From Daphnia carinata (lineage: Eukaryota; Arthropoda; Branchiopoda; Diplostraca; Daphniidae), in NCBI RefSeq assembly GCF_022539665.2, contig NC_081336.1, forward strand, positions 9,338,778 to 9,402,777: a stretch of 64,000 bases of DNA, read 5' to 3'. Shown here one piece after another: positions 1 through 18,668 of this stretch. The first letter of the stretch is position 1; each line of letters opens with the position of its first letter. The notes under the pieces are model-generated. The model was given only the letters and a program-made list of their open reading frames with translations. It did not search any database and was not told the origin of the DNA. Both the position numbers and the translations under genes were made by a program.

Positions 1-189
1 ACAGGTTTGAAAATATTTTACAACAAGATAAGATGTTAGCTGACTCAAACCGGCTGATAACTAAAGTGGACAAAATCCATTGTGTTACGTACCTCTTTAA
101 GTTTCATGCGCAGCTGAAGCTACTTTTTTTCATCCCTCCACTTCTTCTAAGGGTTGTAATTGACTAGGTGATATCACGAGGTGGCCCAT

Positions 190-545
190 TCATGCATTTT
201 CCTGTTCCAATATTGGAACAGATGGAACGATTTTGGTGGCTGAATGTCTAAGCGATGATGTGGTAATGCACTCAATTATACCAATAGTGACCAAAAAATG
301 CATTAGTTTAACGGCCATGTCTTGCTTGGCGTCTTCCTTGGACCCCACCACATTTTCCAACTTCCTGCAACAGACTGTTTGCTGTTTGCATTCTTGGCAA
401 GGATAGTACTTGCTCACATCTTCAGCTTGTAAAATGGCTTCAAAGTGCTCTTCGTTTGCAATATTCACCACAAAAACGAATTTGTCAAACTGTGTGCCAA
501 TGTCTGCCTCTGTCATTTTTAACGGTAAACAATTTACATTTCAGG
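190..545 (-). pseudogene. Fragment of the nuclease-like/NACHT gene family
   Basis: The 108-residue open stretch matches the middle region of the three large NACHT genes at 3.3-18.7 kb. It carries the FVFVVN segment, DVSKYY, ECKQQT and, after a gap, the KLMHFL block that corresponds to KLTHLL in the first full gene. About 60 residues present in the full genes between ECKQQT and that block are missing. Similarity continues a few bases upstream of the methionine to about 545, so the ATG is not a real start. No nuclease-like or P-loop part is present. It is a detached, internally deleted copy and is very unlikely to make a working protein. Confidence 0.8.
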
Positions 546-1745: not shown

Positions 1746-1848
1746 ATTCCAATGGACTCAAAACCTGGCACTGCCCCGGCTAGTGCATGACGTCATGGCT
1801 AGGTTTCTGACTGCCCTAACCCTACTCTGTAGGGCAGCCATTGGAAAT
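1746..1848. mobile_element. MITE-like element, about 100 bp
   Basis: It begins ATTCCAATGG and ends CCATTGGAAAT, a terminal inverted repeat of about 9 bp. Just inside the right end a second inverted pair, CTGCCCTA and TAGGGCAG, would form a hairpin. It has no coding capacity. Size and structure fit a miniature inverted-repeat element, but no target-site duplication is obvious. Confidence 0.5.
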
Positions 1849-1899
1849 CGCCATATGCTGTTCTGCCAAGAGAGAAAAGCTTAAGCCATGTAATTGCTA

Positions 1900-2270
1900 A
1901 GGTCTAAATGAAAATATGGACATTTCTGGTTTCAACAGAGCAATAAGGCAAGATTGTCCTAAGGCTTGTTTGACAGATTCAAGGTTCAACTGAAACATTA
2001 TAACATGTATGTATACTTGGTCAGGTGTTTTCGTAATTCATCAGCTGTTATATTTGTTTTTAATAAAGATTTTTTTGCTGGTTACTCTGTGGTTTTACAT
2101 ATAAGGAAGTGAAACCTTTATGGCCCACATTTCCAATCGCTTCTAGGTTGCAATTAAACACTGCCCAGTGAAGCCTAATCATTCATGGAGGATCTACTAC
2201 CAATGAATCTTATTCGTGTGGTAAGTAATATTTTTTAAATATGTTACTTATAAATGCAAAATGACATGAA
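1900..2270 (-). pseudogene. Decayed ankyrin-coding 3' remnant of the NACHT family
   Basis: On the minus strand this aligns with 9361-9780, the ankyrin-coding 3' part of the second NACHT gene. Shared landmarks on the plus strand are CCTAAGGCTTGTTTGAC, GGTCAGGTGTTTTCGTAATTC, the stretch around CACTGCCCAGTG (codons for ALHWA in the intact gene) and the final GGTAAGTAATATTTTT. Small deletions and stops break the frame throughout. It lies in the downstream flank of the first NACHT gene. A similar remnant at 8250-8640 lies in the matching place behind the second gene, so the remnant existed before the tandem duplication. Confidence 0.75.
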
Positions 2271-2339
2271 CGTTGCTTCATGCTTTGTTGTGACAGTTCT
2301 CATCTCTAGAAATAACAACTGCACACTTCTCCTAACACA

Positions 2340-3120
2340 GGTATTCCCTTCTTCATTGATTAACCTTTCATCTGTGATATTCACATTTCATTTTGTTGAA
2401 TAGATTGGTTTGAAAGTAATTGCTGGTTGGTTTTACAACCAAAATGTGGCAGTCTGTTTGTATGACTATGGTTTGTCGAATTCTGCCACGTTTGGGAAGA
2501 AATGTGTTGGTAATGCTGCTGATCGAGAATTGGTATTTGAAACTATTCTCTTATCAGTTTATTGACCAGATCGTTGCTATTCAGAGACTTTGGGGAATTC
2601 GAAGGCTGTTTGTCACGCACATCACAAACTCGTCACGCGCTTCATGTATTTGCTAAACTATATGCGTCGTTGACTTGACGCGTCTATTTAAATTTTGGCC
2701 AACGCTAGATCATCAAGGCAGAAAACGTTAATCAAGAATTCAACATGGACTTTCCGCAAGGTGTTTGACTACTTATATTGTAAACAACATTTTCAGTCTC
2801 GTATGATTTGATTATTACGTTTTCCAACATAAGATTGCGGAACGTACCTGAAATTGTTGATTGAACCCACGTCGTTGGAAACGCATCTAGTGATTGGGAT
2901 TTTACTTTATACTGGATCTCATATCACAAAGCAGGTCAATTGAATTTGAATCTTCCCCGAATGTTTGTGTATGCATAAAGGTAATTGATTTTTTTAAATT
3001 TAACGAATAATTAAAGGCAGGTAAATTTTTCTGAAATATATTGCTAGAGTGAAGTACATAAAACACTAACTATAATAGTCACAGACTTGTCGACAATGAT
3101 TTAAGCTGCAACGACAAGTT
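2340..3120. repeat. Dispersed block of about 0.75 kb, copy 1
   Basis: A block found four times in the window (here, 8640-9030, 25950-26400 and 29200-29990). It has coding-like stretches on the plus strand, for example YGLSNSATF followed by GNAADRELVFETI and AIQRLWGI. Stops and a candidate intron interrupt it, and I do not recognise the protein. The block ends near the words TAATTAAAGGCAGGTA and GTCACAGACTTGTC, which are shared with the 3' ends of NACHT genes 1 and 2 and with the sequence behind the third astacin gene. Confidence 0.65.
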
Positions 3121-3276
3121 TCGCCAATCGGACGTTACTAGCAGTCTAGACCTCCTATGATTGTTGCAGTAAAAAAAAAATCCGACGTGCTGCGCGTCAA
3201 AGCAATACGTCGCCATAATGGGGAAGCAGTCTTTTATACATTTGGCCATTGTTCATGGCTTGAAATTGGAAAGCTG

Positions 3277-6200
3277 CTAACTGAGAAATTGTTCGAATGC
3301 AGCCTTGATGATTGGCTTCGTTTCAGTTTCGCCCAAAGATCCATCGAGGCAATCGAGTAAAAATTGAAACAAGTTCGCAGTTTTTGAGGCAGCAATTAAC
3401 GCGTTGGTATACCGATTGATAAAAACTGAACTAAATTGTTGTGGGTTTTTGATGTGCTGAGCTAAATCTTCAGCAAATTTTTTCAATTGATGTGGTAGTT
3501 TCGTTCTTCGACCAACTTCCGTCTTGTTCAGCATGGAATTCAAAAATACCCTTACTCCTTGATAATTGTTTTCAACTAAAATTTCATTAATGATCAATTT
3601 GCGTACAGGTTCCCCATCCAAAAGCTGGTTCTCCTCGACAGTGGTTATGTCCATTCCTCTATGCAAATATCGAGCAAACAAGTATTCGGCGTAGGTGCGA
3701 TGAATGAACTGGACTTTAGATTTCTCTTCACCTTTGGTAAATAGAACTAATCCGTATTTCACTCCTAAATCATTTGTTGTTTTTTCCTTTTCAGACTTTT
3801 CAGTAGCCGAGTGATAATACGACAGTCGAGAGGGCCATAAAATATTCACGTTCTTCTCCTTCACGACGAGTGTCTCTATGGCCAATTTAGTCAGGTGAGA
3901 CTCAATGTCATCGATCAAGAAATCCATAGCGCAGCTCCCGATGTCACCGATACTTAACGATTTTGTCTTTTCTTTCCGAAAGATTCGCCGTTTTGCTTCC
4001 AAAAGACAGTCGTACAGACTCTTTAAATCGAAATTTTGATACCTTAATGTTACATTTACATTGTCGTTTTTTATTTGTTCTTCAACATCCGACTGGTAGC
4101 ACTCGGCTAGAATTCGACATTGCAATGGAACTCCAATGAAGGATTTTTCTTCATCTGTTAGAGTCTGCGATACTCGGTGAGCTAACGCTTCGGCGAACTT
4201 CTTTATAATAATAGGCTTGTTTTCCGTTTCAATGTTTTGTAAATTTGCTTGCCAATGCTTGATTAAGTAATCAATTTGGCCTTTTTCAGCCAAAATTTGC
4301 AGGTGATGTGCCAATTGAAACAACCCAGATTGTAATTCTTCTACCATGTGGGGCCTGGTCGTCACGTAGAGTTCAATCGTTTCCTTCTCGGCGAGCATTT
4401 TCATCAAACGGATTACGTTCTGTTGACAATCACGACTGATTTCATCGAAGCCATCAAACATGAAAGCAATCCTGTCTCCCGTTTTTATTCGGTGCCTTAA
4501 CAGTGATCGAGAAAACAAGCTGTCATTTGCAACGATGTGCAACTGCTTGACAAGGAAATCAACGCCGTTGACTTCAGAAGTTGCCGCTGATGGTGAGAGA
4601 GCTGTTTCGTGCTCAACTAGATTTATTTTAATGATCCAGTGATCTGGTTTTGCTCGTTTCATTCCCATGTAGTAATGGGAGAGGAGAGTTGATTTGCCTG
4701 TTCCAGCCACACCAGATATAATAACAACCGGAAGTCGTTCACTTCCCTCATCCAGCCGGATGAGCTGGCTCTCGTCGATAGCGTTTGAGGACACTTGTTC
4801 ATCTGTAAGACGTTTAATTGCTTCCCATATGGATTGACGCTCTTCGTGTTTGACAAGCCATTTTATTCCACCTTGCGCAGTGATTCTGCATTTGTCCTGG
4901 AGCTGATCTACCGTAAAATTTAAACGATTTGCTAATTTAGTTTCGGAAGATTTGTTGAATGCAGTCATCAACCGCCTTTCGATGTACGAAGATTTTTCGT
5001 ATGCCGATGTGTCCGATTTATAAATGTTGATATCTTTATTCTGCTGGAACAGCAATTCTTCTATAGAAAGGTAATCGATGGCTTTGTCTGGCTCGTTTCC
5101 AACCAGCTCATTCACGGTTAACGTCGTTCCTTGGAACGTAATTGTTTTCTGTAGGATAGCCTTTTGAAATTTCTCGCTCAACTCTGCGAAAGTGATGCTG
5201 TCTGTCATTCCACCAGTTCCGTCACGACAGAGGAACATTATTTTGTTGACCTTTTGATTATCCGGAACAAGATCTGCATAATGACATGGATCAGGTGTTT
5301 CTTTATCGCAAACGACGATGAGAAGATGGTGAGAATCTTGATTTAATTTCAAAATGTTTTTCCAACGGTCCTTGTCTTGTAAACTACTCAGTTTCACCAC
5401 CAAAAAGCTTTCATTCCTGTTGTACTCCGGTACATTCTGAATGGCCGAAAAGACTTTAACAGCCGTATGCTTCGGTGACTGGGTAATAATTCGTTCAATC
5501 CTGTTACCATTAGCTAGCAAATGTGTTAGTTTAACGGTCATTTTATTACTAGCATTTTCGTTGAACCCCATCATGGTTTTTAATTTTGTCTGATACTCTG
5601 TTGAAATCTCTCTAGCACCTTCTAGTAAGATCTCCTTGGCTTTTTCTGATGTTAGCCAATCGCCCCCTTCCATTGCCTTCTGTATAGCAACCGGTATTTC
5701 TTTCAACAAGTGGTTCGTTTGCTGTTTGCATTCTTTGCGAGTGTAGTACTTGCTCACATCTTCAGTTTGTAAAATCTCTTCAAATCGCTCTTCGTTTGGC
5801 ATGTTTACCACGAACACCAATTTCTCGAGAAATGCTTCAAGGTCTGCGACCTCGATTTTTAACGGTAGGCCATTTTCTGTTTCACCGTTCGTTTGGCTCT
5901 TTCCAAAATTGTTACTCAGTTGGAATTTCCATTTTACTAATTCGACGTATCCCACCTTTTTGCTGAGGATTTGACATAGTTGATTAGCTCCATCGGACAA
6001 CGGGGACACGTAGAAAACATCGCGCACTTCAAGATGTTTAGCTCCCTTGAGAAAGTCCTCATGGAACTTTCCGTTTGTTTTGTTAGTAGGATCAATGACA
6101 ATGACGTGTTCCTTGATTAAAGCAACATGAAAGTTTTTAAAGACATCGATTTTCATATCAATTTTTTTTTTATCTTCGCTTATCTTCCCAAAGTCTTGCA

Positions 6201-6999
6201 ACTTTTCGGCAAGACGATCTATGTCTGACGGCCATTCCTTTAACGCTTCATCTTGTAACTCGTCTGTGAATTCCAATTTATAACGAGCTGTCTTTTCTTG
6301 AGGACCAAATTCGAAAATTCTTTCATTTTCGTCTTTTATACGTATCAGTTTGATGACGTCTTGTTGCTTATGTTTAATCCACACGGAATCATTAGCATTA
6401 TCTTGTAACTCCCTTGTGCAATTCAATCGATCACTAGCTGTTTGTTCTCCTTTCTTTTCTTGCGGATCTAATTTTAAATTTTCATCAGGTTGGTGGTCGT
6501 TCGCCACGAAGCCTGTCCGTTTGTCCTTGTTGTCACCTTTCACATAAAAGTTGATGTTGGTGCAAATGATGCAGTCTTGAATGTCACCGCCTCTCCGACT
6601 TATCATGCAGAACGAACGGAAATACTTTGGTAAGCTGAAATCGCCCTTGCCCTTATCTAGTAGGTGATCCGCATTTATCTTGTCATTCTCGTTTTCCTTG
6701 TGTTTGGCCTGCAGGTAGCGATAGAGCCAATGCTTACCTTCAGGTGTTTCGTCTGGCACTTGATATCGGAAAATCACATCGTCAAACTTACCGCCCAGGT
6801 CTTCCCTTCCTTTGCCCAATTCAAATCTGTAACCGGCCCCGAGTGCTCGGATGCAAAACAACGCCCTCAGCTTCGATTCAAATTTCAAACCGTGTTCTTC
6901 ATCAGTATTTTTTTTAGTTTTTTTTCCTGCTTTATCCGCTGAGGCTGGTGTGCTCATTGGTGTTAAATTGCTGGGCGTTGGCTCGTCACCTGTCTCCAT
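3277..6999 (-). CDS. NACHT-1: nuclease-like/NACHT STAND protein, short form (1240 aa)
   Basis: A single intronless frame of 1240 residues. After a Lys/Ser/Ala-rich tail (1-35), residues 36-150 look like a PD-(D/E)XK nuclease fold: E41 in the first helix, KFDD (D73, D74), YLQAKHK (Q97, K99), then a strand ending CIICTN. A middle region of about 550 residues is unassigned. The NACHT ATPase follows, with Walker A GVAGTGKS at 763-770, Walker B FMFDGFDE around D849, and TTRP near 880. A winged-helix-end motif, FIHRTYAEYLFARYL, lies near 1095-1110. The start fits because all three paralogues share the METGD/MEAKS-type N-terminus. Compared with NACHT-2 it lacks the last 380 or so residues, including the ankyrin part, ending at FEQFLS. 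Family knowledge suggests an intracellular STAND sensor or switch. The nuclease activity and its ligand are inferences. Confidence 0.85.
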   Translation of the reverse strand: METGDEPTPSNLTPMSTPASADKAGKKTKKNTDEEHGLKFESKLRALFCIRALGAGYRFELGKGREDLGGKFDDVIFRYQVPDETPEGKHWLYRYLQAKHKENENDKINADHLLDKGKGDFSLPKYFRSFCMISRRGGDIQDCIICTNINFYVKGDNKDKRTGFVANDHQPDENLKLDPQEKKGEQTASDRLNCTRELQDNANDSVWIKHKQQDVIKLIRIKDENERIFEFGPQEKTARYKLEFTDELQDEALKEWPSDIDRLAEKLQDFGKISEDKKKIDMKIDVFKNFHVALIKEHVIVIDPTNKTNGKFHEDFLKGAKHLEVRDVFYVSPLSDGANQLCQILSKKVGYVELVKWKFQLSNNFGKSQTNGETENGLPLKIEVADLEAFLEKLVFVVNMPNEERFEEILQTEDVSKYYTRKECKQQTNHLLKEIPVAIQKAMEGGDWLTSEKAKEILLEGAREISTEYQTKLKTMMGFNENASNKMTVKLTHLLANGNRIERIITQSPKHTAVKVFSAIQNVPEYNRNESFLVVKLSSLQDKDRWKNILKLNQDSHHLLIVVCDKETPDPCHYADLVPDNQKVNKIMFLCRDGTGGMTDSITFAELSEKFQKAILQKTITFQGTTLTVNELVGNEPDKAIDYLSIEELLFQQNKDINIYKSDTSAYEKSSYIERRLMTAFNKSSETKLANRLNFTVDQLQDKCRITAQGGIKWLVKHEERQSIWEAIKRLTDEQVSSNAIDESQLIRLDEGSERLPVVIISGVAGTGKSTLLSHYYMGMKRAKPDHWIIKINLVEHETALSPSAATSEVNGVDFLVKQLHIVANDSLFSRSLLRHRIKTGDRIAFMFDGFDEISRDCQQNVIRLMKMLAEKETIELYVTTRPHMVEELQSGLFQLAHHLQILAEKGQIDYLIKHWQANLQNIETENKPIIIKKFAEALAHRVSQTLTDEEKSFIGVPLQCRILAECYQSDVEEQIKNDNVNVTLRYQNFDLKSLYDCLLEAKRRIFRKEKTKSLSIGDIGSCAMDFLIDDIESHLTKLAIETLVVKEKNVNILWPSRLSYYHSATEKSEKEKTTNDLGVKYGLVLFTKGEEKSKVQFIHRTYAEYLFARYLHRGMDITTVEENQLLDGEPVRKLIINEILVENNYQGVRVFLNSMLNKTEVGRRTKLPHQLKKFAEDLAQHIKNPQQFSSVFINRYTNALIAASKTANLFQFLLDCLDGSLGETETKPIIKAAFEQFLS

Positions 7000-7260
7000 T
7001 TCAAGCGCTTTCTTCTGTCCCGCAAAGATTTCTTCTGTGGGATAGTGGGATGTTTATCGCACCAAGTGAAACTGGTGGAATCGAAGAAGGAATCAGAGTC
7101 AAGTTGTTCAAAATGGCGGCCTTAGATAACGTCACTGGCGATAAGCCGGCGTTAGCTTGTCCCGAAACAAGCCCACTGAGCTGTCCAGTGGCTTTGAAAG
7201 CGTTTAGCTATTTGAGATTATGTTATATTTGTTTTTTTTTACTCACCTATTAGCAAAGAA
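7000..7260 (-). promoter_or_regulatory. Conserved 5' flank of NACHT-1
   Basis: The roughly 250 bp upstream of the start codon is nearly the same before NACHT-1 and NACHT-2 (13808-14060) and still recognisable before NACHT-3 (18669-18970). Shared words include CTTTCTTCTGTCCCGCAA, AACTGGTGGAATCGAAGAAG, AACGTCACTGGCGATAAG and TTAGCTTGTCCCGAAACAAG. It probably contains the 5' untranslated region and core promoter. No TATA box is obvious. Confidence 0.45.
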
Positions 7261-7478
7261 ATTTGCACTTTGAGAAAATGAAGAGTTTAATGGGAATGAA
7301 GAAAAAATTGGTGTAGCGTGTAAAGATTCATGGACAACTTTCGTTCGCCATGACTTTACTGTAAACGCGCAACATGAATCCTGTTCTGGCTTTAAGAGGT
7401 AAATTGAAGTTTGCAGATAACGTATTTTACAACTTTACAAGCGATAAGCTTATCGTTTGGGAGAGATATGCTAGACTT

Positions 7479-7566
7479 CTAATTTGTTGACAATTGTATT
7501 TGTCCTGTTTCAAATTTGTTCGTTTCAGAACGGCCTAGAAGGACAACAGTTCCATTACGACTAATT
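7479..7566 (-). pseudogene. Orphan C-terminal tail of a Tret1-like gene
   Basis: The minus strand encodes NGTVVLLGRSETN followed by KFETGQIQL and a stop. This is nearly the C-terminus of the intact transporter at 19.4-21.2 kb. No transmembrane part is present. Together with the NACHT 5' flank it reproduces the junction between the third NACHT gene and its neighbouring transporter, so the tandem unit extended beyond the NACHT gene. Confidence 0.75.
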
Positions 7567-7640
7567 AAACTGGCCAAGACGCTAAAAGCGTCTATCCCGA
7601 ACAACTCACGACACGACTTAGACGCAGTGATTAAACAGGT
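7562..7640 (+). pseudogene. Fragment of a small unidentified exon
   Basis: The plus strand reads IKLAKTLKASIPNNSRHDLD followed by AVIKQ. It matches the exon at 22328-22459 (IKLAETLKTSIPNNSRHDID) and the broken copy near 26650-26700. It is joined directly to the transporter tail at 7479-7566, a junction not found at the source locus, so it arose by rearrangement. Confidence 0.6.
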
Positions 7641-7649
7641 TACAGGAGC

Positions 7650-8245
7650 AAAATTTCGGTTTGCGTCAAAGGAGGTGCTTCTTGGTTTCTTGTCTCGCCT
7701 TGATATTTTTTAATGTAAGAGCCTGTATTTTTCGTGTTTGATGTATACTATTTCATCACGAATAATAAATGTACGCAATCTATTTTTAAAATTTTTCATG
7801 CGAAACTTATAGCGTTTTTATATTCTGGGCATTACAATTATATTAATTGGGCAAAAGAATAAGCAGTTTATTTGAAAAGGTAAGGCAAGTGTATTGAACA
7901 GGAAATGTATACAAATCTCGATTACATAAAGGTCTTTTAGAAATATGGCAACATAGAAACCGAGTAGAAGGTGCCAAAGGTAAGGGTAACGAAAGCCTGT
8001 TATTCGTCCGTTTCTTACCATTCCCATCATTCAATGGTTGACACTGGCATGGTTCGGACGTCGCCTCTCGTGTACAGCGTCTTGGAGAAAACACCTTCGT
8101 GTTGAATAGGTGCTCGATACACTTACGATCCTTGTTGTTCAAGTTGATGAGTAGAGCATTAACCAATTTTGCATTTTGTTGTAACAACACTACGCTGTTC
8201 TTTGGAGCCCAGATGGAATAGCTTGATTCATGAAATTGCGAGGTC
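7650..8245. other. Spacer; one unassigned minus-strand open stretch
   Basis: At 7843-8190 (minus) a 115-codon open stretch begins LLQQNAKLVNALLINLNNKD and includes a Cys-containing part (REATSEPCQCQPL). I found no second copy, domain or clear splice partner. It could be one exon of a small gene or chance. Nothing else is seen. Confidence 0.25.
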
Positions 8246-8249
8246 TAAA

Positions 8250-8640
8250 TGTATCTATGGGTATTTCCGATTTCAACAAAGCCTAAGGTAAGATTGTCCT
8301 AAGGCTTGCTTCACAGATTCATGGTTCAGCTGAAATATTATCCTTTATACCCCGTCAGGTGTTTTCATAATTCATCAGCTGTTATATTTGTTGTTAATAA
8401 AAATATTTTTTGCAGGGTACTTTGTGTTGTGAAACCTTTGTGGTCCACAGTTCCATCACCTCCAGGTCACAGTTGAACATTGCCCAGTGAAGTCTAATCG
8501 TTCATGGAGGATCTACCAATGAATCATTGTGTGGTAAGTAATATTTTTTCAAATATGTTACTGATGAATGCCAAATGGCACAAACCTTGCATCACGCTTG
8601 GTTTTGACATGTCTCATCTTGAGAAATAACTTCTGCACAC
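8250..8640 (-). pseudogene. Decayed ankyrin-coding remnant, second copy
   Basis: Parallel to 1900-2270 and to 9361-9780 of NACHT-2, with the same landmarks (CCTAAGGCTTGCTTCAC, GTCAGGTGTTTTCATAATTC, GAACATTGCCCAGTGAAG, GGTAAGTAATATTTTTTC). Frame breaks occur throughout, so no protein is expected. It sits immediately downstream of an intact NACHT gene that has its own ankyrin end. It is therefore a separate ancestral fragment carried along in the duplication unit. Confidence 0.75.
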
Positions 8641-9030
8641 TTCTCCTAACACAGGTATTTCCTTGTTCATTGATAAACCTTTCATCCATGCCATTCACTT
8701 TTCGTTTTGTTGGATAGATTTGTTTGAAAGTCATTACTGGTTAGTTTTATAACTAAAATGTGGCATTCCGAGTCTATGGCTACGGTTTGTCGAATTGTAC
8801 CACATATGGGGAAAAACATGATGATAATGCTGTTGTTCGAGAATTAGTGTTTGAAACTATTCTCTTGTCAGCTTGTTGACGACAGCGTTGCTATTCAGAG
8901 ACTTTGGGGAATCCGAAAATCAATAATTAAAGGCAGGTAGATTTTACTGAAGTGTATTGATGGAGTCAACTACAAAAAAACACTAACTATAACAGTCACA
9001 GACTTGTCTGCAATGATCTAATCCGGAGCG
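8640..9030. repeat. Dispersed block, copy 2 (internally deleted)
   Basis: Matches 2340-3120 and 29200-29990 but jumps from GGGGAATCCGAA directly to AATAATTAAAGGCAGGTAG near 8920, losing about 400 bp. Its end overlaps the last codons of NACHT-2. The 3' end of that gene is therefore shared with this repeat. Confidence 0.65.
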
Positions 9031-12000
9031 TCAAGTTCCACCATTCGTGTGATGATAGCAAAGTAAAACCCCAATGGCGGTCGCAGTTCATAAAGCGTTG
9101 TCTCCACATTTCCTGCCCATTCACGTTCATCATTCCATGAAGTGTTTCTTCTACGATATAGTTCACCGTTTTGACTGTTTCTTTGCTTTGGAAGACTAAA
9201 TCGTTTAAATTAGTGTATCCCACTTGACTGCCGTCCTCGAGCATAACTTTGGCTATGGTTTTGAATAACAGTTTGCGGTCTATGCCTGTCTTCAGAGCCA
9301 AGAGGAGAGTGTCTTGCCCATCATATACCTGACTTGCAAACGATTCTATGGCCTTTTTTGATTTCAACAAATCCATAAGGTAATTTCGCCCTAAGGCTTG
9401 TTTGACGGATTTAAGGATCACCTGAAACATTTTGACATTTTCAAAGCAAACTGCATCCCACATGGCCGTAAATACGAATCCTTTATCGTTGGTCAGGTGT
9501 TTTCGTAATTCATTATCTGTCGCGTTCCATCTTGTTTTTAATAAAGATAATATTTTGTTACAGAATTCTTCTTGATGACGAGCGGCTGCTACGTAGAAGG
9601 GCGTGAAACCGTCATCTGCGTTGCACGTTTCGTGGCCCATACTTTCAATCGTTTCCAAGTCGCCATTGAACGCTGCCCAGTGGAGTGCAGTCATTCGAGG
9701 AGGAGGATCCACCAGTGAATCTTGATCCGGTAAGTAATATTTTTCGAATAAATTAGTGACAAGTGCCAAATGACATAAACCTTGCATCACTGTTGGTCGT
9801 GACAGTTCTCGTAAAATTTTTAGGGTTGTTTCTATTCCATTACTGGGTGGGTAGTTCACTTTATCTTCGTTGTTGGCTTGCATATTTAATGTACATTTTA
9901 TTAGTTCAGTAAAGTTGTTGTCTTCGGAGTAGATGGAAGATAGGATGCGTAAGAATTTGACTAGGACGTTGCTGTCATCTTCATTAAAGATGTAAAAATG
10001 AAGTAATATAACCGACATGTCCAGTGGTCCGAATGGTGGTTGTTCTAAATCCAAAGCAAGTTTTAAATGTAACGTGTGGTTTTCCACAAAGTCCAACGTC
10101 GTATTCAGGACGTGTTTTGCCTTATCGTTGTTCCGTAAATAGACATAGTTTGAAGAGAAAATTCTTGAAACAAAGAGATTTTGGTACAATTGTTTGACGA
10201 TACGCTTCCCGTCAACGACGTCTGCGTCGCCGTAATAAGAAAGAATTCTTTTAAGTACTTTATCATTGCCCTTGACTGAATGGAACAATTTACAAAAATC
10301 AGAAAGGTAGCGTGGCTTTTCGCCCAGATGTAAGAAAATAGAAAAGTCAAATGGTTCTTCGAATGCAAACGTGACGACTCGCTTCGCCTCAGATTCGTCT
10401 AACGTTCCATCGAGACAATCGAGTAAAAAATGAAACAGGTGTTCAGTTTGGAGGGCAACAATTAAAGTGTTGCCATGGGGATGAATTCTATAACGTCGGG
10501 TCAGATGGATGTGCTTAGCTAAATGTGTAGCAAATTTTTTCAATAGATCTGTTGGATTTGTTCTTTGATCGTTTTCTGTCTTCGTCAGCATGGAATTCAA
10601 AAATACCCTTACTCCGTGATAATTGTCTTGAATTAAAATTTCATTAATGACCAAGTCGCATATAGGTTTCTCATCAAACAGCCGGTAATTGGCGACGTTG
10701 TTGATGTCCATTTCTTGATACAAATAGCGAGCGAACAAGTACTCGGCGTAGGTGCGATGAACGAATTGGACGTAAGATGTCTCTTCACATTTGCTGCGCA
10801 GAACTAATCCGTATTTCACTCCCGAATCTGTCAAATCCTTTTCATTGTCCGATAGTTCATGCGGGTGCTGGAAGGGCCATAAAATATTCGCGTTACTGTC
10901 GTTCGCCACAAGTGTCTTTACAGCCAATTTAGTAAGATGAAACTCAATGTTAAGGGTGGAAAAATGCATAGTCCCCCTGCCGGTGTTATTGGAAATTGAT
11001 GATTTACCCTTTTCTTCCTGATAGATTCGCCGTTTTGTTTTCAAAAGACGTCCGAACAGGCCCTTTAAATCGAAATCTTGGTCCTCTAGTGTTACGCATT
11101 CTCCTACTTTGTCGTCTTCTATGCGTTTTCCAACTTCAGGTAGATAGTACTCGGCTAGAATTCGACATTGCAACGGAACTCCAATGAAGCACATCTCTTC
11201 ATGTTTTAGAGTCTCGGATATTCGTTGAGCTAATGCTTCGGCAAACTTCCGTATAATAATTGACTTGTTTTCCTGTTCAATTTCATGTAAATTTTCTTGC
11301 CAGTAGTTGATCAAGTAATTAATTTGATCTTCTTCAGACAAGATTTGCAGGTGGTGGGCCAATTGAAACAATCCAGATTGTAATTCGTCTACCATGTGGG
11401 GCCTTGTCGTTACGTAGAGTCCAATCGTTTCCTTCTCGGCAAGTATTTTCATCAAATGAATCAATTTCTGTTGGCAAACGTGGCTGATTTCGTCGAAACC
11501 ATCAAACATGAAAGCAATTCTCTTTCCCGTTTTGATTCGGTGCCTCAACAGCGAACGTGAAAACGGGCTGTCATTTGCAACGATGTGCAGCTTGTTGACG
11601 AGGAAATCAACGGCATCGTCTTCAGCAGTTGTTGCTAATTGTGCGAGAGCTGTTTGGTGCTCTGCTAGATTGGTTCTAATGATCCAGTGATCTGGTTTTG
11701 CTCGTTTCTTTTCCATGTAGTAATGGAAGAGGAGAGTTGATTTGCCTGTTCCAGCTCCATCGGATATGATAACAACCGGAGATCGTTCACTTCCCTCATC
11801 CAGACGAACGAGTTGGCTCTCGTCGATGGCGTGTGAGGACACTTCTTCATCTGTGAGGCGTTTAATTTCTAACCATATGGATTGACGATCGGCTTCCTTG
11901 ACAAACCATTTTATTTCACCTTGCGCAGTGAATTTGCATTTCTGGTGGAGCTCATCTAATGTACAATTTAAGCGGTTTGTTAATTTGGTTTCGAAAGATT

Positions 12001-13807
12001 CGTTAAACGCAGTCATCAACCGCCTTTCGATGTACAAATATTCTTCGTATGCCGATGTGTCTGATTGGGGAATGTTGACTTCTTTTTCCTCCTGGAACAG
12101 CAACTCTTCTATAGACAGGTGATCAATAACTTTGTCCGGTTCGTTTCCAACCAGCTCGTCGACGGTTAACTTTGTTCCTTGGAACGAAATTGTTTTTTCC
12201 AGGATATCCTTTTGGAATTTCTCGCTCAACTCTGCGTACGTGATGTCGCCACGACAGATGAACACTATTTTGTTGACTGTTTGATCGACCGGAACAAGAT
12301 CTTCATAACCACATGGATCAGGTGTTTCTCTATCGCAAACGACGACGAGAAGATGGTGAGAATTTTTTTTCAATTTAAGAATGTTTGTCCAACGTTTCTT
12401 GTCCTTTAAACTACTCAACGGCACCACTAAAAAGCTTTCGTCCCTGGTGTACTCCTCTACCTTCTTAATGGCCGAAAGGAATTCAACGGCCGTATGCTTC
12501 GGGGATGGGGTAATAATTCGTTCAATCCTGTTGCCATTGGCCGGCAATTTTTTTAGTTTATCGATCATTTTATCACTGGGAATTTCGTCGAACCCCACAT
12601 CCTCTTTCAGTTCTTCCTGATAGTGTTGTGACGCTTCTGTAACACCATCTAATAAGATCTCCTTGGCTTCTTCTGATGTTAGCCAATCGTTCACATCCTT
12701 GTCGCTGAATTTCTGATCTATATCGTGCATCAAACAGATTGTTTGCTGTTTGCATTCTTTCTCAATGTAGTACTTGCTGATGTCTTTGCTTTGTAAAATG
12801 TCTTCAAATTGTTTTTCGTTTGGCATATTTACCACTAGCACGAATGTGGCAAGGAATGCATCAAGGTCTGCGTCTTCGATTTTTAACGGGAGGCCATTTT
12901 CTGTTTCACCGTTCGTTTGGCTCTTTCCAAAATTGTTGTTCAGTTGGAATTTCCAGTCGACATATCCCGGCCGTTCGCTGAGGATTTGACGTAATTGCGC
13001 TGCCCCGACGGACAAACTTTCGACTCCATTTACAAAGTCGTGATGGAATTTTTTCGTTTTCAAATCAATGACGCTTTCCTTGATTAAAGCAACGTGATAG
13101 CTGCTAAAGATTCCGCTTCTTATATCAGTTGTTTTGTTGCCTTGAGCGCATTCTTGCAACTGTTCGGCGAGACGTTGAATGTCTGGCCATTCGTTTAACG
13201 CTTTTCTTCTCAACTCTTCTGTGAACTCCAATTTATAACGGGCTGTCTTCTCTTTCGGATTCTCCCCATCTTTTCTTTCGAATTCTAGAATGCCTTCCCA
13301 TTGGTCGTTAATCGACACTAATTTGATCCCATTCTTTTCGACATCCAAATGAAAACCGATGTTGGTGCAAATGATGCAGTCGTGAATGTCATCGCCTCTT
13401 CTTCTCATCATGCAGAAGGAACGGAAATATTTTGGTAAGCTGAAATCGCCCCTGTCATTGTCTCCGAGTAGATGAGTTGCATTGATCTTATCAGTCTCGT
13501 TTTGCTTGTGTTTGGCTTGCAGGTAGCGATAGCGCCAACGTTTACCCTCAGGCGTTCCATCTGAGACTTGATATCGGAAAATCAAGTCGTCAAATTTACC
13601 GCCCAGATCTTCCCTTTCTTTGGTCACTTCAAACTTGTAACCGGCCCCAAGTGCTCGGATGCAAAACAACGCCACCAACTTGGATTCAAATTTCAAACCG
13701 TGAGTTGCATCAGGTAACTTTTTGGTTTTCTTTCCCGCTTTATCCGCCGAGGCTGATGTCCCCCTTGGTGTTAAATTACTGGCCGTTGGCACGTCACCCG
13801 TCTCCAT
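8996..13807 (-). CDS. NACHT-2: nuclease-like/NACHT/ankyrin STAND protein, long form (1603 aa)
   Basis: Intronless and the longest of the three paralogues. The nuclease-like segment keeps E41, D73/D74 and Q97-A-K99. The NACHT part has Walker A DGAGTGKS at 683-690, where the first glycine of the usual GxxGxGKS is aspartate. Walker B is FMFDGFDE around D769, and the FVHRTYAEYLFARYL motif follows. Unlike its neighbours it continues another 380 or so residues. Near residue 1370 there are ankyrin-like helices (TALHWAAFNGDLETIE, then DGFTPFYVAAA, then weaker repeats such as GQDTLLLALKTG). The gene has the full nuclease-like/STAND/sensor layout. Inferred role: intracellular detection of non-self or damage with a nucleic-acid-cleaving output. 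No ligand can be named. The changed P-loop glycine may weaken nucleotide binding. Confidence 0.85.
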   Translation of the reverse strand: METGDVPTASNLTPRGTSASADKAGKKTKKLPDATHGLKFESKLVALFCIRALGAGYKFEVTKEREDLGGKFDDLIFRYQVSDGTPEGKRWRYRYLQAKHKQNETDKINATHLLGDNDRGDFSLPKYFRSFCMMRRRGDDIHDCIICTNIGFHLDVEKNGIKLVSINDQWEGILEFERKDGENPKEKTARYKLEFTEELRRKALNEWPDIQRLAEQLQECAQGNKTTDIRSGIFSSYHVALIKESVIDLKTKKFHHDFVNGVESLSVGAAQLRQILSERPGYVDWKFQLNNNFGKSQTNGETENGLPLKIEDADLDAFLATFVLVVNMPNEKQFEDILQSKDISKYYIEKECKQQTICLMHDIDQKFSDKDVNDWLTSEEAKEILLDGVTEASQHYQEELKEDVGFDEIPSDKMIDKLKKLPANGNRIERIITPSPKHTAVEFLSAIKKVEEYTRDESFLVVPLSSLKDKKRWTNILKLKKNSHHLLVVVCDRETPDPCGYEDLVPVDQTVNKIVFICRGDITYAELSEKFQKDILEKTISFQGTKLTVDELVGNEPDKVIDHLSIEELLFQEEKEVNIPQSDTSAYEEYLYIERRLMTAFNESFETKLTNRLNCTLDELHQKCKFTAQGEIKWFVKEADRQSIWLEIKRLTDEEVSSHAIDESQLVRLDEGSERSPVVIISDGAGTGKSTLLFHYYMEKKRAKPDHWIIRTNLAEHQTALAQLATTAEDDAVDFLVNKLHIVANDSPFSRSLLRHRIKTGKRIAFMFDGFDEISHVCQQKLIHLMKILAEKETIGLYVTTRPHMVDELQSGLFQLAHHLQILSEEDQINYLINYWQENLHEIEQENKSIIIRKFAEALAQRISETLKHEEMCFIGVPLQCRILAEYYLPEVGKRIEDDKVGECVTLEDQDFDLKGLFGRLLKTKRRIYQEEKGKSSISNNTGRGTMHFSTLNIEFHLTKLAVKTLVANDSNANILWPFQHPHELSDNEKDLTDSGVKYGLVLRSKCEETSYVQFVHRTYAEYLFARYLYQEMDINNVANYRLFDEKPICDLVINEILIQDNYHGVRVFLNSMLTKTENDQRTNPTDLLKKFATHLAKHIHLTRRYRIHPHGNTLIVALQTEHLFHFLLDCLDGTLDESEAKRVVTFAFEEPFDFSIFLHLGEKPRYLSDFCKLFHSVKGNDKVLKRILSYYGDADVVDGKRIVKQLYQNLFVSRIFSSNYVYLRNNDKAKHVLNTTLDFVENHTLHLKLALDLEQPPFGPLDMSVILLHFYIFNEDDSNVLVKFLRILSSIYSEDNNFTELIKCTLNMQANNEDKVNYPPSNGIETTLKILRELSRPTVMQGLCHLALVTNLFEKYYLPDQDSLVDPPPRMTALHWAAFNGDLETIESMGHETCNADDGFTPFYVAAARHQEEFCNKILSLLKTRWNATDNELRKHLTNDKGFVFTAMWDAVCFENVKMFQVILKSVKQALGRNYLMDLLKSKKAIESFASQVYDGQDTLLLALKTGIDRKLLFKTIAKVMLEDGSQVGYTNLNDLVFQSKETVKTVNYIVEETLHGMMNVNGQEMWRQRFMNCDRHWGFTLLSSHEWWNLTLRIRSLQTSL

Positions 13808-14290
13808 TTCAAGCGCTTTCTTCTGTCCCGCAACGATTTTTTCGGTGGGATAGGGGGATGTTTATCGCACTACGTGAAACTGGTGGAATCGAAGAAGGAA
13901 TCAGAGTCAAGTTGGTCAAAATGGTGTGCAAAGATGGCCTTAGATAACATCACTGGCGATAAGCCGGCGTTAGCTTGTCCCGAAACAAGCCCACTGAACT
14001 GCCTACTGGCTTTGCAAGCGTTTGTGTAGTTGAAGTTATGTTTTTTGTTTTTGTTTTTTACTCACTCACTAACAATGAAATTTGCACTTTGAAAAAATTG
14101 CAGAGCTAAATGGGAAAGGTAGAAAAATTGGAACGAGACAACCTCCGTTCGCCACGACTACACTGTGAACGCGCAACATCAAGCCTGTTCTAGCTTTAAG
14201 AGGTAAATTGAAGTTTGCAGATAACGTATTTCACAACATTTATTTGATAAGCGATAAGCTACCGTTTGGGAGAGATATGTTACACAGATG
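13808..14290 (-). promoter_or_regulatory. Conserved 5' flank of NACHT-2
   Basis: Near-copy of the flank upstream of NACHT-1. The same words occur in the same order, followed by TTTAAGAGGTAAATTGAAGT and GCAGATAACGTATTT, which are also found near 7400. It marks the boundary of the duplication unit and probably holds the promoter. Confidence 0.45.
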
Positions 14291-14449
14291 ATTAAGAGTC
14301 AACCTGGCAATGACAGTTGGTAGCAGACGAAACCCAGAATGGACGTCGTAGTCCAGAAAGTGATTTTTTTCAAATTTTCGAGTCCAATCACGTCAATCGT
14401 TTTATGAAATGTTTCTTCCTTGATATTCTTAAGTAGTATTTCGACTGTT

Positions 14450-15089
14450 TCTGTTTTGTAGAACACTAAATCGTTTAAAATATAAAATAATCATAATATA
14501 AAATAATATTCAGTTGGGTGTTTTCGTATTTCATCAGCTGTTACATTTGTTTTTAATAAGGATACTATTTATTGGCAGGTTACTTTTGGTGTTACATAGA
14601 AGGATGTGGAACCATTATGTATGCTAAATGTTTCCTGGCATACATTTTCAATCACTTCCAGGTCACAATTAAACACTGCCCAGTGAAGTCTAGGCATTCA
14701 TGGAGGGTCTGCCAATGAATCTTTGTCTGGTAAGTAACATTTTTCAAATATATTTGTAAAGAATGCCAAATGACGTAAGCCTTACATCAATCTTGGCTAT
14801 GACAGTTCTCGTAAAATGTCCAGGGTCTTTTCAATTCCATTGTTGAATGGATATGTTCAGTTATCTTTGTTGTAATCTTGGATATTTAATGTACATTTTA
14901 TTAGTTCAGTAAAGTTGTCTTCAGAGTAGGTGGAAGATGGGAAGCGTTTTTGGCTCCTGGTTGTTCCAAACGTTGACATAGACTTTATTGTGGTTTAAGT
15001 GTAATGGAATGAGTAATATCTGATCTCAGGTTTGTGTAATAACTCTTCCCAGCAGTAGGCAATTGTCCAGTTTTAAGAAAATGGTAACG
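14450..15089 (-). pseudogene. Broken ankyrin-coding 3' part of NACHT-3
   Basis: Collinear with the last 1.3 kb of NACHT-2 but damaged. GATATTTAATGTACATTTTA with the following TAGTTCAGTAAAGTTG matches 9880-9930. GGTGTTTTCGTATTTCATC and ACACTGCCCAGTGAAG match the ankyrin part. Deletions and stops fall in every frame. It directly follows the stop codon of NACHT-3 at 15090, so that gene was truncated in place and did not lose its end by rearrangement. Confidence 0.75.
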
Positions 15090-18000
15090 TCAATATATGC
15101 TCGCAGATTTGAGGAGTTGACATACTTTAGTTCTGGTCAATGTTCCATATAGACAATCGATTAAGAATAAAAACAACTTCTCAGTTTGGCGGGTAACTAT
15201 TAAAGCGTTGGTATGCTGGTCATTGGGAAGACGTTGATTACGTTCTGGTTGATTGATGTACTGAGCTAAACCTATAGCAAGGTTTTTCAAATGATTTGGT
15301 AGTTCCGTTCTTCCGTCCAGTTTTTTTTTGTTCAGCATGGAATTCAAAAATAACCTTACTCCTTGATAATTGTCTTGAATTAAAATTTCTTCAACTACAA
15401 AGTCACGTACAGGTATCTCATTCAAAAGCTGTTTGTTGTCGACGTTGTTTATGTCCATTCCTCTATGCAAATATCGGGCGAACAAGTATTCGGCGTAGGT
15501 GTGATGAACGAACTGGACTTTAGATCCCTCTTCACCTTTACTGACTAGGACTAATCCGTATTTTACTCCTAAATCAGTTATTTTGTTTTCCTTTTCAGAC
15601 TTTTCAGTAGCCGATAGAAAATACGGCAACGGGGTTGGCCATAAAATATTCACATTCGTCTCGTTCACAACGAGTGTCTCTATGGCCAATTTTGTCAAGT
15701 AAGACTCAATAGCAACGATCAAGAAATCCATGGCCCTTTTGCCGATTTGATTGAAACTCGACGATTTTGCCTTTTCTTCCAGAAAAATTCGTCTTTTTGT
15801 ATCCAAGAGACGGTCGTACAAACTCCTTAAATCGAAGTGTTGAAAATCAAGTGTTAAACATTCTTTTGCTATGTCGTTTTTGATCTGTTTTTCAACTTCA
15901 GATTGGTAGCACTCGGCTAGAATTCGACATTGCAATGGAACTCCAATTAAGGCTCCCTCGTCCTCTCTTAGAGTTTGAGATACTCGTTTAGCTAACTCTT
16001 CGGCGAACTTCCGTATTCGCTTGTTTTCCATTTCAATCTCATTGCTTTGCTTTGTTTCTTTCTGTTTGCGAAACTTTGCTTGCCAATACTTGAACAAATA
16101 GTCAATTTGGTCATTTAAAGTCAAAATTTGCAGGTGATGCGCCAATTGAGACAACTCAAATTGTAATTCGTCTACCATGTGGGGTCTTGTCGTTACGTAG
16201 AGTTCAATCGTTTTCTTCTCGGCGAGCATTTTCATCAAATGAATCACGTTCTCTTGACAAACGTGGCTGATTTCGTCGAAGCCATCAAACATGAAAGCAA
16301 TTCTGTCTCCCGTTTGCAATCGGTGTCTCAAGAGGGAACGAGAAAAGGGGCTGTCATTTTCAACGATGTGCAACTGTTTGACAAAGAAATCAACGGCATC
16401 GTCTTCAGATTCAGTTATTACTGATTGTAAGAAACTTGTTTGGTGCTCTACTAGATTGATTCTAATGATCCAGTGATCTGGTTTTTCTTGTTTCATTTTC
16501 ACGCAGAAATGGGAGAGGATAGTTGATTTGCCTGTTCCAGCCGCACCGGATATGATAATCGGAAGCGGTTCACTGTCCACAGCCAAACGAATGAGTTCGC
16601 TCTCGTGGATTTCGTTTGAAGACATTTTTTCATTGGCAAGGTATTTTATTTCTCTCCATATTTTGGATTGGTGCTCGTTGCCTTTGACAAACCATTTTAT
16701 TTCACCTTGCGGAGTGATTCTGCATTTCTCGTGCAACTCATCTACTACTTTACAATTTAAGTAACCTGATAATATGGTTTCGAAAGATTCGTCAAATGCA
16801 AACGTCAACCGCCTTTCGATGTACAAAGATTTTTCGTATGCTGATGTGTCCGATCGGGGAATGTTGATTTCTTTCCCCTCCAGGAACAGCAACTCTTCTA
16901 TAGAAAGGTAATCGATGATTTTGTCCGGTTCGTTACCGACCAGCTGATTGACCGTTAACTTTGTTCCCTGGAACGAAATTGTTTTCTGCAGGATAGCACT
17001 TTGGAATTTCTTACTCAACTCTGCGTAAGTGATGCTGTCCGTCATTCCACCAGTTCCGTCACGACAGAGGAACAATATTTTGTTGAATATTGGATTATCC
17101 TGAACAAGTTCTGCATAACCACATGGATCAGGTGTTTCTTTATCGCAAACGACGATAAGAAGATGGTGAGAATCTTTATTTAAATTCAGAATGTTTTTCC
17201 AACGAACCTTGTCTTCTAGATTACTCAGTGACACTACCAAAAAGCTTCCATCCCTGTTGCACTGTGGCACCTTCTGAATGGCCGAAAAGATTTTGACAGC
17301 CGTATGCCTTGGTGAAGGGGTAATAATTCGCATAACCCTTTCATTTTTAGCCAGCAATTTTTTTAATTCACTAGCCATTGTTTCCATGGCGTCTTCGTTG
17401 AACCCCATCTCGGCTTCTAATCGTGTCTGATTTTTTTTTGAAATGGAAGTAACATCAGATAGTAAGATCTTCTTGGCCTCTTCTGATGTTAGCCAATAGC
17501 CGTTTGCCTTTTTGGAGAATTTAGCTGACACTCTGTGCAACAAGCAGATTGTTTGCTGTTTGCTTTTTTTGCTAGGGTAGTACTTGCTCACATCTTTAGT
17601 TCGCAAAATGCCTTCAAATTCATTTTCGTTTGGCATGTTTACCACGAACACTAATTTCTCAAGGAATGCATCAATATCTTCGTCCTCGATGTTTAGCGGC
17701 AGACGATTTTCTATATCCGTATCCGTCTCTTTTTTTCCAAACTTATTATTCAGTTTGAATTCCCATTTTTCCCAGTTGCCATACTCTGCTCCTTTGCTGA
17801 GAATTTGACGTAGTTGTTTCGCCCCATCGGATAACGGGGACACGTTGGAAAAATCGGGCACTCCATTATGTTTGACCTCGTTGAGAAAATCCTCATGGAA
17901 CTTTCCGTTTGTTTTGTTGGTAGAATCAATACGAATGACACGTTCATTAATCAAAGCAACAAAATAGTTGCTAAAGACTCCGGCTCTTGTATCAATTGTT

Positions 18001-18668
18001 TTTTTATTTTGCGCGTATTCTTGCAACTGTTTGGCAAGACGTAGAATGTCAGGCCATTCGTTTAAAGCTTTTCTCCGTAGCTCTTTGGTGAAGTTGAGTT
18101 TATAACGAGTCTTCTCTTTCGAACCAAATTCTAGAATGTCTTCCGGTTGGTGGTTAATCGACACCAATTCTATGCCCTTTGCCTGGAAATCCTTTGAATT
18201 AAAACCGATGTTGGTGCAAATGATGCAGTCGTGAATGTCTACGCCCCTGCGTCTTATCATGCAGAAGGAACGGAAATATTTTGGTAAGCTGAAATCGCCC
18301 TTGTCATTATCTAGGAGGAGGTGATCCGCATTTATCTTCTCATTCTCGTTTTCCTTGTGTTTGGCTTGCAGGTAGCGATAGCGCCAAGGTTTAACTTCAG
18401 GTGTGTTGTCTGTCACTTGATATCGGAAAATTACGTCGTCAAATTTTCCGCTAACGTCTCCTCTTTCTTTGGCCAATTCAAACTTTTTACCGGCCCCAAG
18501 TGCTCGTATGCAAAACAACGTCAACAACTTTGATTCAAACTTCAAACCGTGAGTTGCATCAGATACCTTCTTGACTATCTTTCCCGCTTTATCCGCCGAG
18601 GCTGATGTTCTTATTGATGTTAATTGGCTGGGCGTTGGAACGTCAACTTGTTTAGATTTTGCCTCCAT
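15090..18668 (-). CDS. NACHT-3: nuclease-like/NACHT STAND protein, truncated form (1192 aa)
   Basis: Third tandem paralogue, intronless. The nuclease-like segment is shifted by four residues: E45, D77/D78 and Q101-A-K103, again with the CIICTN strand. Walker A is canonical (GAAGTGKS, 708-715), Walker B is FMFDGFDE around D795, and FVHHTYAEYLFARYL closes the winged-helix part. Translation stops shortly after the region where NACHT-1 also ends. The missing C-terminal sequence is still visible as a decayed stretch at 14450-15089. The protein may still work as a short receptor or regulator like NACHT-1, or be an early-stage pseudogene. The conserved ATPase and nuclease-like residues favour retained function. 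Confidence 0.8.
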   Translation of the reverse strand: MEAKSKQVDVPTPSQLTSIRTSASADKAGKIVKKVSDATHGLKFESKLLTLFCIRALGAGKKFELAKERGDVSGKFDDVIFRYQVTDNTPEVKPWRYRYLQAKHKENENEKINADHLLLDNDKGDFSLPKYFRSFCMIRRRGVDIHDCIICTNIGFNSKDFQAKGIELVSINHQPEDILEFGSKEKTRYKLNFTKELRRKALNEWPDILRLAKQLQEYAQNKKTIDTRAGVFSNYFVALINERVIRIDSTNKTNGKFHEDFLNEVKHNGVPDFSNVSPLSDGAKQLRQILSKGAEYGNWEKWEFKLNNKFGKKETDTDIENRLPLNIEDEDIDAFLEKLVFVVNMPNENEFEGILRTKDVSKYYPSKKSKQQTICLLHRVSAKFSKKANGYWLTSEEAKKILLSDVTSISKKNQTRLEAEMGFNEDAMETMASELKKLLAKNERVMRIITPSPRHTAVKIFSAIQKVPQCNRDGSFLVVSLSNLEDKVRWKNILNLNKDSHHLLIVVCDKETPDPCGYAELVQDNPIFNKILFLCRDGTGGMTDSITYAELSKKFQSAILQKTISFQGTKLTVNQLVGNEPDKIIDYLSIEELLFLEGKEINIPRSDTSAYEKSLYIERRLTFAFDESFETILSGYLNCKVVDELHEKCRITPQGEIKWFVKGNEHQSKIWREIKYLANEKMSSNEIHESELIRLAVDSEPLPIIISGAAGTGKSTILSHFCVKMKQEKPDHWIIRINLVEHQTSFLQSVITESEDDAVDFFVKQLHIVENDSPFSRSLLRHRLQTGDRIAFMFDGFDEISHVCQENVIHLMKMLAEKKTIELYVTTRPHMVDELQFELSQLAHHLQILTLNDQIDYLFKYWQAKFRKQKETKQSNEIEMENKRIRKFAEELAKRVSQTLREDEGALIGVPLQCRILAECYQSEVEKQIKNDIAKECLTLDFQHFDLRSLYDRLLDTKRRIFLEEKAKSSSFNQIGKRAMDFLIVAIESYLTKLAIETLVVNETNVNILWPTPLPYFLSATEKSEKENKITDLGVKYGLVLVSKGEEGSKVQFVHHTYAEYLFARYLHRGMDINNVDNKQLLNEIPVRDFVVEEILIQDNYQGVRLFLNSMLNKKKLDGRTELPNHLKNLAIGLAQYINQPERNQRLPNDQHTNALIVTRQTEKLFLFLIDCLYGTLTRTKVCQLLKSASIY

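What the first reader, a model, noticed from the sequence alone, without database searches (positions are those of the whole stretch)
8996..13807. Nuclease-like domain fused to a NACHT ATPase and ankyrin repeats in an animal genome
Seen: all three paralogues keep a Glu in the first helix, a DD pair after a KF, a QxK after a YL, and a following CIICTN strand within about 110 residues. This is the order and rough spacing of PD-(D/E)XK nucleases of the Cap4/DUF4297 or Mrr type. A clear NACHT P-loop and Walker B follow, and one copy also has ankyrin-like repeats. Known: bacterial antiviral STAND proteins (Avs) join nuclease effectors, STAND ATPases and repeat sensors, and animal NLRs join other effectors to NACHT and repeats. 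Inference: this is an NLR-like intracellular immune receptor whose output is nucleic-acid cleavage.
Basis: partly seen in the sequence, partly recalled or inferred. Interest (0 to 1): 0.88.

Follow-up and report, generated by a model that had tools for sequence, protein, structure and literature searches.

The report
Animal NLR carrying a bacterial-type nuclease
A water flea genome carries a family of NLR-like immune-receptor genes whose front part is a DNA-cutting-enzyme fold related to bacterial antiviral nucleases; this suggests animal immune receptors that may act by cutting nucleic acid, although no cutting has yet been shown.

Summary
8996-13807 (-) is an open 1603-aa frame in a Daphnia genome with two tandem paralogues; all three have a Pfam NACHT, this copy also ankyrins. 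The N-terminal domain, unseen by Pfam, is a PD-(D/E)XK fold related to bacterial Cap4: profile-profile probability 96.9%, against 0.03-1.01% for 20 shuffled controls, with the lysine mutated in Cap4 K74A on the family's QxK lysine. D74, Q97, K99 and H100 are identical in 55 of 55 aligned members. E41 is not (30 E, 22 Q, 2 H of 54); E64 (50 of 55) is a better acidic candidate. The modelled paralogue matches NLRC4/NLRP3/NOD2 from residue ~562, and bacterial Avs3/Avs4 over ranges that begin at the nuclease domain. Relatives occur in insects and in four Rickettsiales contigs, so genes have probably moved between arthropods and endosymbionts, direction unresolved. Nuclease activity and an immune role are inferred. 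Verdict: an animal NLR with an unusual, Avs-like design; new variant of a known kind.

The parts
8996..13807 (-). W2: single-exon ORF, 1603 aa, nuclease-like domain + middle region + NACHT + ankyrin repeats
   Evidence: own-genome place G000:C6:9347776-9352584
13358..13702 (-). W2 residues 36-150: Cap4-related PD-(D/E)XK nuclease domain
13586..13588 (-). W2 D74, predicted metal ligand, identical in 55 of 55 aligned members
13511..13519 (-). W2 Q97-A98-K99 (QxK motif); Q97 and K99 identical in 55 of 55; K99 aligns with the lysine that is Ala in Cap4 K74A
11828..12787 (-). W2 residues 341-660: middle region, predicted alpha/beta in paralogue W3, fold not identified
   Evidence: part of it (to about residue 519) also in a kinase-nuclease gene without NACHT
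11300..11773 (-). W2 residues 679-836: NACHT domain (P-loop DGAGTGKS at residues 683-690; Walker B FMFDGFDE at 766)
10268..11257 (-). W2 residues 851-1180: region after NACHT corresponding to the WHD/HD2-like part of the W3 model; FVHRTYAEY at 1015
9545..9715 (-). W2 residues 1365-1421: ankyrin repeats
   Evidence: Ank_2 3.3e-08
3277..6999 (-). W1: paralogue, 1240 aa, nuclease domain (about 6547-6894) and NACHT (about 4264-4728); Gly at the E64 position
15090..18668 (-). W3: paralogue, 1192 aa, nuclease domain (about 18207-18551) and NACHT (about 16113-16562); modelled at full length
14288..14946 (-). decayed 3' remnant (several frames) downstream of W3
8026..8613 (-). decayed 3' remnants (several frames) downstream of W2
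1921..2299 (-). decayed 3' remnant (several frames) downstream of W1
121..534 (-). fragment of a further copy (matches about residues 308-490 of relatives)

Best explanation
This is an intracellular NLR-type receptor with a built-in nuclease. Supported by computation: a Cap4-related PD-(D/E)XK domain at the N-terminus, a NACHT-WHD-HD2 switch of the NOD2/NLRC4/NLRP3 type in the middle, ankyrin repeats near the C-terminus of this copy. Inferred: the C-terminal part senses a ligand from an intruder or from stress, the NACHT exchanges nucleotide and oligomerises, and the clustered N-terminal domains become active metal-dependent nucleases through D74, K99 and probably E64 and cut DNA (RNA is possible), ending the infection or killing the cell, as bacterial Avs proteins are reported to do (recalled). 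The genes form a birth-and-death tandem family, and relatives have probably passed between arthropods and Rickettsiales endosymbionts.
Confidence: 0.62

Rival explanations
1. The domain has the PD-(D/E)XK fold but now works mainly as a nucleic-acid-binding or protein-interaction module, so the protein senses or signals rather than cuts.
For: Degenerate copies exist: a kinase-fused copy has QAN in place of QxK and W1 has Gly for E64. First-helix Glu is often Gln.
Against: D74, Q97 and K99 are unchanged in 55 of 55 members from Daphnia, insects and unnamed sources, and this is the region with the highest identity among the three paralogues. Binding alone would not be expected to keep exactly the catalytic residues.
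Confidence: 0.2
2. It is a selfish or toxin-type gene that came from endosymbiont bacteria and spreads by duplication, without a role in immunity.
For: Tandem copies, fragments and decayed ends are common.
Against: The family occurs in named Daphnia species and in Hermetia, Anoplophora, Culex, Mythimna, Euwallacea and Zophobas, and dN/dS among the three paralogues is well below 1 in the nuclease domain.
Confidence: 0.1
3. The nuclease-like domain is unrelated to nucleases and the motif is coincidence.
For: No NCBIfam model covers the domain and no Pfam model reaches better than 0.0065, each for one of 21 domains only.
Against: Profile-profile match with shuffled controls, PADLOC nuclease effectors, two models with nuclease topology and mainly nuclease matches at the top.
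Confidence: 0.03
4. Bacterial (endosymbiont) contamination of the assembly.
For: Relatives occur in Wolbachia and Mesenet.
Against: The window lies in a 10.9-Mb contig of a 108-Mb assembly, next to a transporter-like gene at 19360-19965 (label recalled), and related genes are listed for several Daphnia species.
Confidence: 0.01

Closest known systems
Bacterial Avs (antiviral STAND) proteins, in particular Avs3 (8dgc) and Avs4 (8dgf)
Cap4 (CBASS effector, 7yib/7yia)
   Same: Homologous nuclease domain: G-x-x-[YF]-[QE], E, FDD, QxK with the catalytic-mutant lysine aligned.
   Different: Cap4 carries a SAVED sensor; here the partner is NACHT plus, in W2, ankyrins.
Animal NLRs (NLRC4, NLRP3, NOD2)
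   Same: NACHT-WHD-HD2 module, C-terminal repeats in W2.
   Different: Known vertebrate NLRs carry CARD, PYD or BIR signalling domains and LRRs (recalled); here a nuclease-type domain and ankyrins.
Phage WO / Wolbachia NACHT-ankyrin protein and its arthropod homologues (PMC5062602; section 11 and passages read)
   Same: That paper's Figure 5 legend reports NACHT homologues 'throughout arthropods and crustaceans', and says all Daphnia sequences were removed for one tree.
   Different: The word nuclease does not occur in the paper's main text; whether those proteins carry this N-terminal domain was not tested on them. A phage search with one relative's domain (P0039) found no match.
Wolbachia wOc and Rickettsiales nuclease genes; Mesenet nuclease-NACHT-ankyrin gene (L038-L041)
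   Same: Nuclease domain 51-54% identical to the query domain and 34-45% to the window copies; Mesenet has the same domain order as W2.
   Different: Bacterial contigs; in wOc the ATPase is NB-ARC, Mesenet's NACHT is below Pfam's cut-off, and the two MAG genes are broken or short.

Membership tests
PD-(D/E)XK nucleases related to Cap4 | core alpha-beta-beta-beta-alpha-beta topology | tested here: met
   (order of secondary structure)
PD-(D/E)XK nucleases related to Cap4 | conserved D ... QxK at the active-site positions, aligned with Cap4's lysine 74 | tested here: met
   55 of 55; alignment to Cap4; the lysine is Ala in 7yia, titled K74A
PD-(D/E)XK nucleases related to Cap4 | sequence-profile similarity above shuffled controls | tested here: met
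   supported
PD-(D/E)XK nucleases related to Cap4 | match to a curated Pfam nuclease model (not a defining property of the fold) | tested here: not met
   no restriction-type nuclease model among the 12 families matched at E up to 1, each by one of 21 domains; so it is filed as Cap4-related by profile and fold, not under any Pfam family
PD-(D/E)XK nucleases related to Cap4 | metal-dependent cleavage | not testable with these tools
   needs protein
Cap4 proper | C-terminal SAVED domain | tested here: not met
   no SAVED match at E up to 1 in the three window proteins; not filed as Cap4
NLR (NACHT type) | NACHT domain | tested here: met
   above curated cut-off in 3 of 3
NLR (NACHT type) | WHD-HD2 arrangement of animal NLRs after the ATPase | tested here: met
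NLR (NACHT type) | C-terminal repeat sensor | tested here: met
   ankyrins in W2 only; W1 and W3 have decayed 3' ends; no LRR family listed
NLR (NACHT type) | ligand-induced oligomerisation and signalling | not testable with these tools
   experiment needed
Avs | nuclease + STAND ATPase in this order with structural similarity | tested here: met
Avs | TPR-type C-terminal sensor | tested here: inconclusive
   one search lists ankyrins in W2 and no TPR family; the C-terminal part beyond residue 1192 was not modelled
Avs | recognition of viral structural proteins | not testable with these tools
   experiment needed

The most novel reading that the evidence does not exclude
Arthropods possess a large family of NLRs whose direct effector is a live nuclease, the same design as bacterial Avs defence proteins, and the genes have been exchanged between arthropods and the Rickettsiales that live in their cells, so the same immune module serves on both sides of a symbiosis.
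Probability: 0.42. Interest if true: 0.9.

Novelty: new variant of a known kind. Interest (0 to 1): 0.74.

Why it matters
Animal NLRs are thought of as receptors that recruit other proteins to act. A nuclease fused to the NACHT switch would be a receptor that acts directly, like bacterial Avs, and would tie animal innate immunity to bacterial antiphage defence by domain content and not only by the ATPase. It also gives a testable candidate for intracellular immunity in Daphnia, a model host for parasites, and a probable case of gene exchange between arthropods and Wolbachia-related bacteria.

Tried and rejected
Pfam, NCBIfam and PADLOC on the full window proteins gave no nuclease for the N-terminus; domain fragments and profiles did. 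PDB sequence search with W2 gave 38 rows, ankyrin proteins and chance-like rows; with the 48-row full-length profile the 60 rows shown of 494 match only the ankyrin part. Viral-contig scans with W2, A3 and A6 confirmed no relative. Phage and plasmid tblastn with one relative's domain (P0039) found nothing at E up to 1; phage tblastn with a Culex relative gave 17 records whose listed best places all lie in the ankyrin part of the query. A second homologue search with an alignment of 13 relatives without an ankyrin label returned 14 proteins, 8 of them Hermetia; both homologue searches scored only about 8,000 candidates, so taxonomic breadth is a lower bound.

Contamination was considered and rejected (10.9-Mb contig). 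A tree of nuclease domains with four Cap4 rows puts the four Rickettsiales rows in a 16-row group (support 91/83, not starred) with insect and unnamed rows; Mesenet does not join the other three; the Cap4 branch is 3.28 changes per column and its attachment is weak, so the root is open. The careful tree of nuclease plus middle region did not finish; a quick one was printed in its place. No direction of transfer is claimed.

The middle region (341-660) was not modelled alone and no fold is assigned to it; one search tests mainly residues 562-1191. DUF4297 and Mrr were not compared separately. In one search, three of the nine Cap4-type domains come from frames taken with an extended start (L002, L004, L007) and were cut short; 9 of the 27 records were used, 7 of the 9 annotated as SAVED domain-containing.

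Papers: ten searches were made; none listed a paper that by title or abstract start describes a nuclease-NACHT fusion in animals, but the library lacks most subscription journals and all bioRxiv preprints. Passages were read in PMC8195603, PMC5062602 (section 11 whole), PMC10952713 and PMC12445526 (concerns cif genes with two PD-(D/E)XK domains; 0 uses of NACHT). The other papers were seen as listings only. What is said of Avs domains, sensors and antiviral action, and of vertebrate NLR domains, is recalled.

Full report
What is there. The window is part of a 10.9-Mb contig (C6, 9338778-9402777) of a 108-Mb assembly. Two proteins on a contig of the same length are labelled Daphnia carinata (P0010, P0014), so the genome is very probably that species. 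On the minus strand lie three single-exon ORFs in tandem: W1 3277-6999, W2 8996-13807 and W3 15090-18668. Each has a NACHT domain above Pfam's curated cut-off; W2 alone has ankyrin repeats above cut-off. Longer relatives (for example P0004, 1855 aa) suggest that W1 and W3 once had more at the 3' end: remnants of that part lie downstream of them in several broken frames, and a fragment of another copy lies at 121-534. W2 matches P0004 up to residue 1588 of its 1855, so it too may be shortened.

The N-terminal domain. No NCBIfam model sees it, and Pfam gives only scattered weak matches, each for one of 21 domains. A homologue search with W1 gave 62 proteins: the three of the window, 23 labelled Daphnia, nine labelled Hermetia, Anoplophora, Culex, Euwallacea or Mythimna, and 27 unnamed. 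In 55 aligned N-domains D74, Q97, K99, H100, Y126, S129 and T147 never vary; G37 is kept in 53 of 54; position 41 is E in 30, Q in 22 and H in 2 of 54; position 64 is E in 50 of 55. In a 48-row full-length alignment all eight invariant columns lie in this domain; NACHT columns are among the nearly invariant ones.

Selection. Among the three window paralogues amino-acid identity is 82% in the nuclease domain for each pair and 56-78% in the other four regions. dN/dS (NG86) is 0.21-0.30 in the nuclease domain, 0.27-0.37 in 151-340, 0.58-0.72 in 341-660, 0.29-0.66 in NACHT and 0.50-0.74 after NACHT. The N-terminal part is thus the more constrained and the C-terminal half the less, as expected of a fixed effector and a changing sensor. 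Three sequences make this a rough measure.

The family in this genome. The genome search (29 of 51 candidates scored) gave 38 match rows, some of them pieces of one gene; 25 lie within C6 8.95-9.36 Mb. Of 14 distinct nuclease-domain copies read, the window's three included, 14 keep D74 and 13 keep K99 (two duplicate reads and one fragment set aside; one further copy at C6:8085311 not fetched; some copies have stops inside). Twelve loci with NACHT-region frames, and one smaller fragment (L036), had no nuclease domain in any frame of the fetched stretch. Two tandem genes at C6 2.78 Mb join a protein kinase (Pfam Pkinase 5.6e-21 and 3e-22 in the preceding frames) to the nuclease and part of the middle region; one has QAN for QxK. 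A 413-aa frame on C3 has the nuclease and the region up to about residue 343.

Outside arthropods. Their nuclease domains are 51-54% identical to the query domain, an unnamed protein, and 34-45% to the window copies; FDD and QxK are kept in 4 of 4. The Mesenet contig is short (6.6 kb) and from a MAG, so host DNA there is not excluded; for wOc the neighbouring genes argue that it is bacterial. Some unnamed rows may likewise be bacterial. The tree does not fix a direction. An earlier paper reported arthropod NACHT homologues of a phage WO protein without mention of a nuclease.

Mechanism, and how far it is shown. Supported by computation: domain order, fold, homology to Cap4, conservation, NLR-type switch. 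Inferred: sensing by the C-terminal part, nucleotide-dependent assembly, activation of the nuclease, cleavage of DNA (or RNA), and a defence role. I put the nuclease fold and Cap4 relationship at about 0.95 and the complete mechanism at 0.62.

Novelty. In design this is an Avs-like receptor inside an animal. I do not file it as an Avs, since the switch scores higher against animal NLRs and the visible repeats are ankyrins; nor as Cap4, since SAVED is absent; it is an NLR with an unusual effector. I rate it a new variant of a known kind. No paper on such a fusion appeared in the ten searches listed in Tried and rejected.

Noticed in passing
L029 (G000:C6:2780000-2789900), 1786-4066 and 6562-8660: Two tandem genes join a protein kinase (looks like the eIF2-alpha kinase type; that label is recalled) to the same nuclease domain and part of the middle region, with no NACHT in those frames; the second has QAN in place of QxK and is probably inactive as a nuclease.
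   Followed up: partly
L018-L024, L026-L028, L032, L033: Twelve NACHT loci of the same family in this genome lack the nuclease domain in all frames of the fetched DNA; some keep a leader like that of nuclease-bearing copies, as if the nuclease had been deleted.
   Followed up: partly
P0042 (1811 aa, unnamed): A relative (W1 matched over 50% of its length) with ankyrins at the front, a Lipase_3 match above cut-off (1.9e-05) and a NACHT match just below cut-off; whether it has the nuclease domain was not confirmed.
   Followed up: partly
L039 7576-9426, L040 1941-3032, L041 3208-4137: In Wolbachia wOc and two Rickettsiales MAGs a nuclease gene of this family lies next to a secA-like gene; in wOc it continues into NB-ARC; in L040 the frame is broken.
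   Followed up: partly
L038 2824-6054: Candidatus Mesenet longicola contig with a nuclease-NACHT-ankyrin gene in the same order as W2, near a transposase-like ORF (label recalled) at the contig end.
   Followed up: partly
window 19360-19965, 41156-42037, 50526-51407: Three ORFs look like sugar transporters of the Tret1/MFS type (label recalled from sequence, no family search done); the last two are nearly alike and on opposite strands.
   Followed up: no
window 54846-55511: ORF with DEAD-box helicase C-terminal motifs (label recalled from sequence, no family search done).
   Followed up: no
window 34142-34618: ORF end with a GMYWIDPDG...VYCDM stretch like fibrillar collagen C-propeptide or fibrinogen-like proteins (label recalled).
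   Followed up: no
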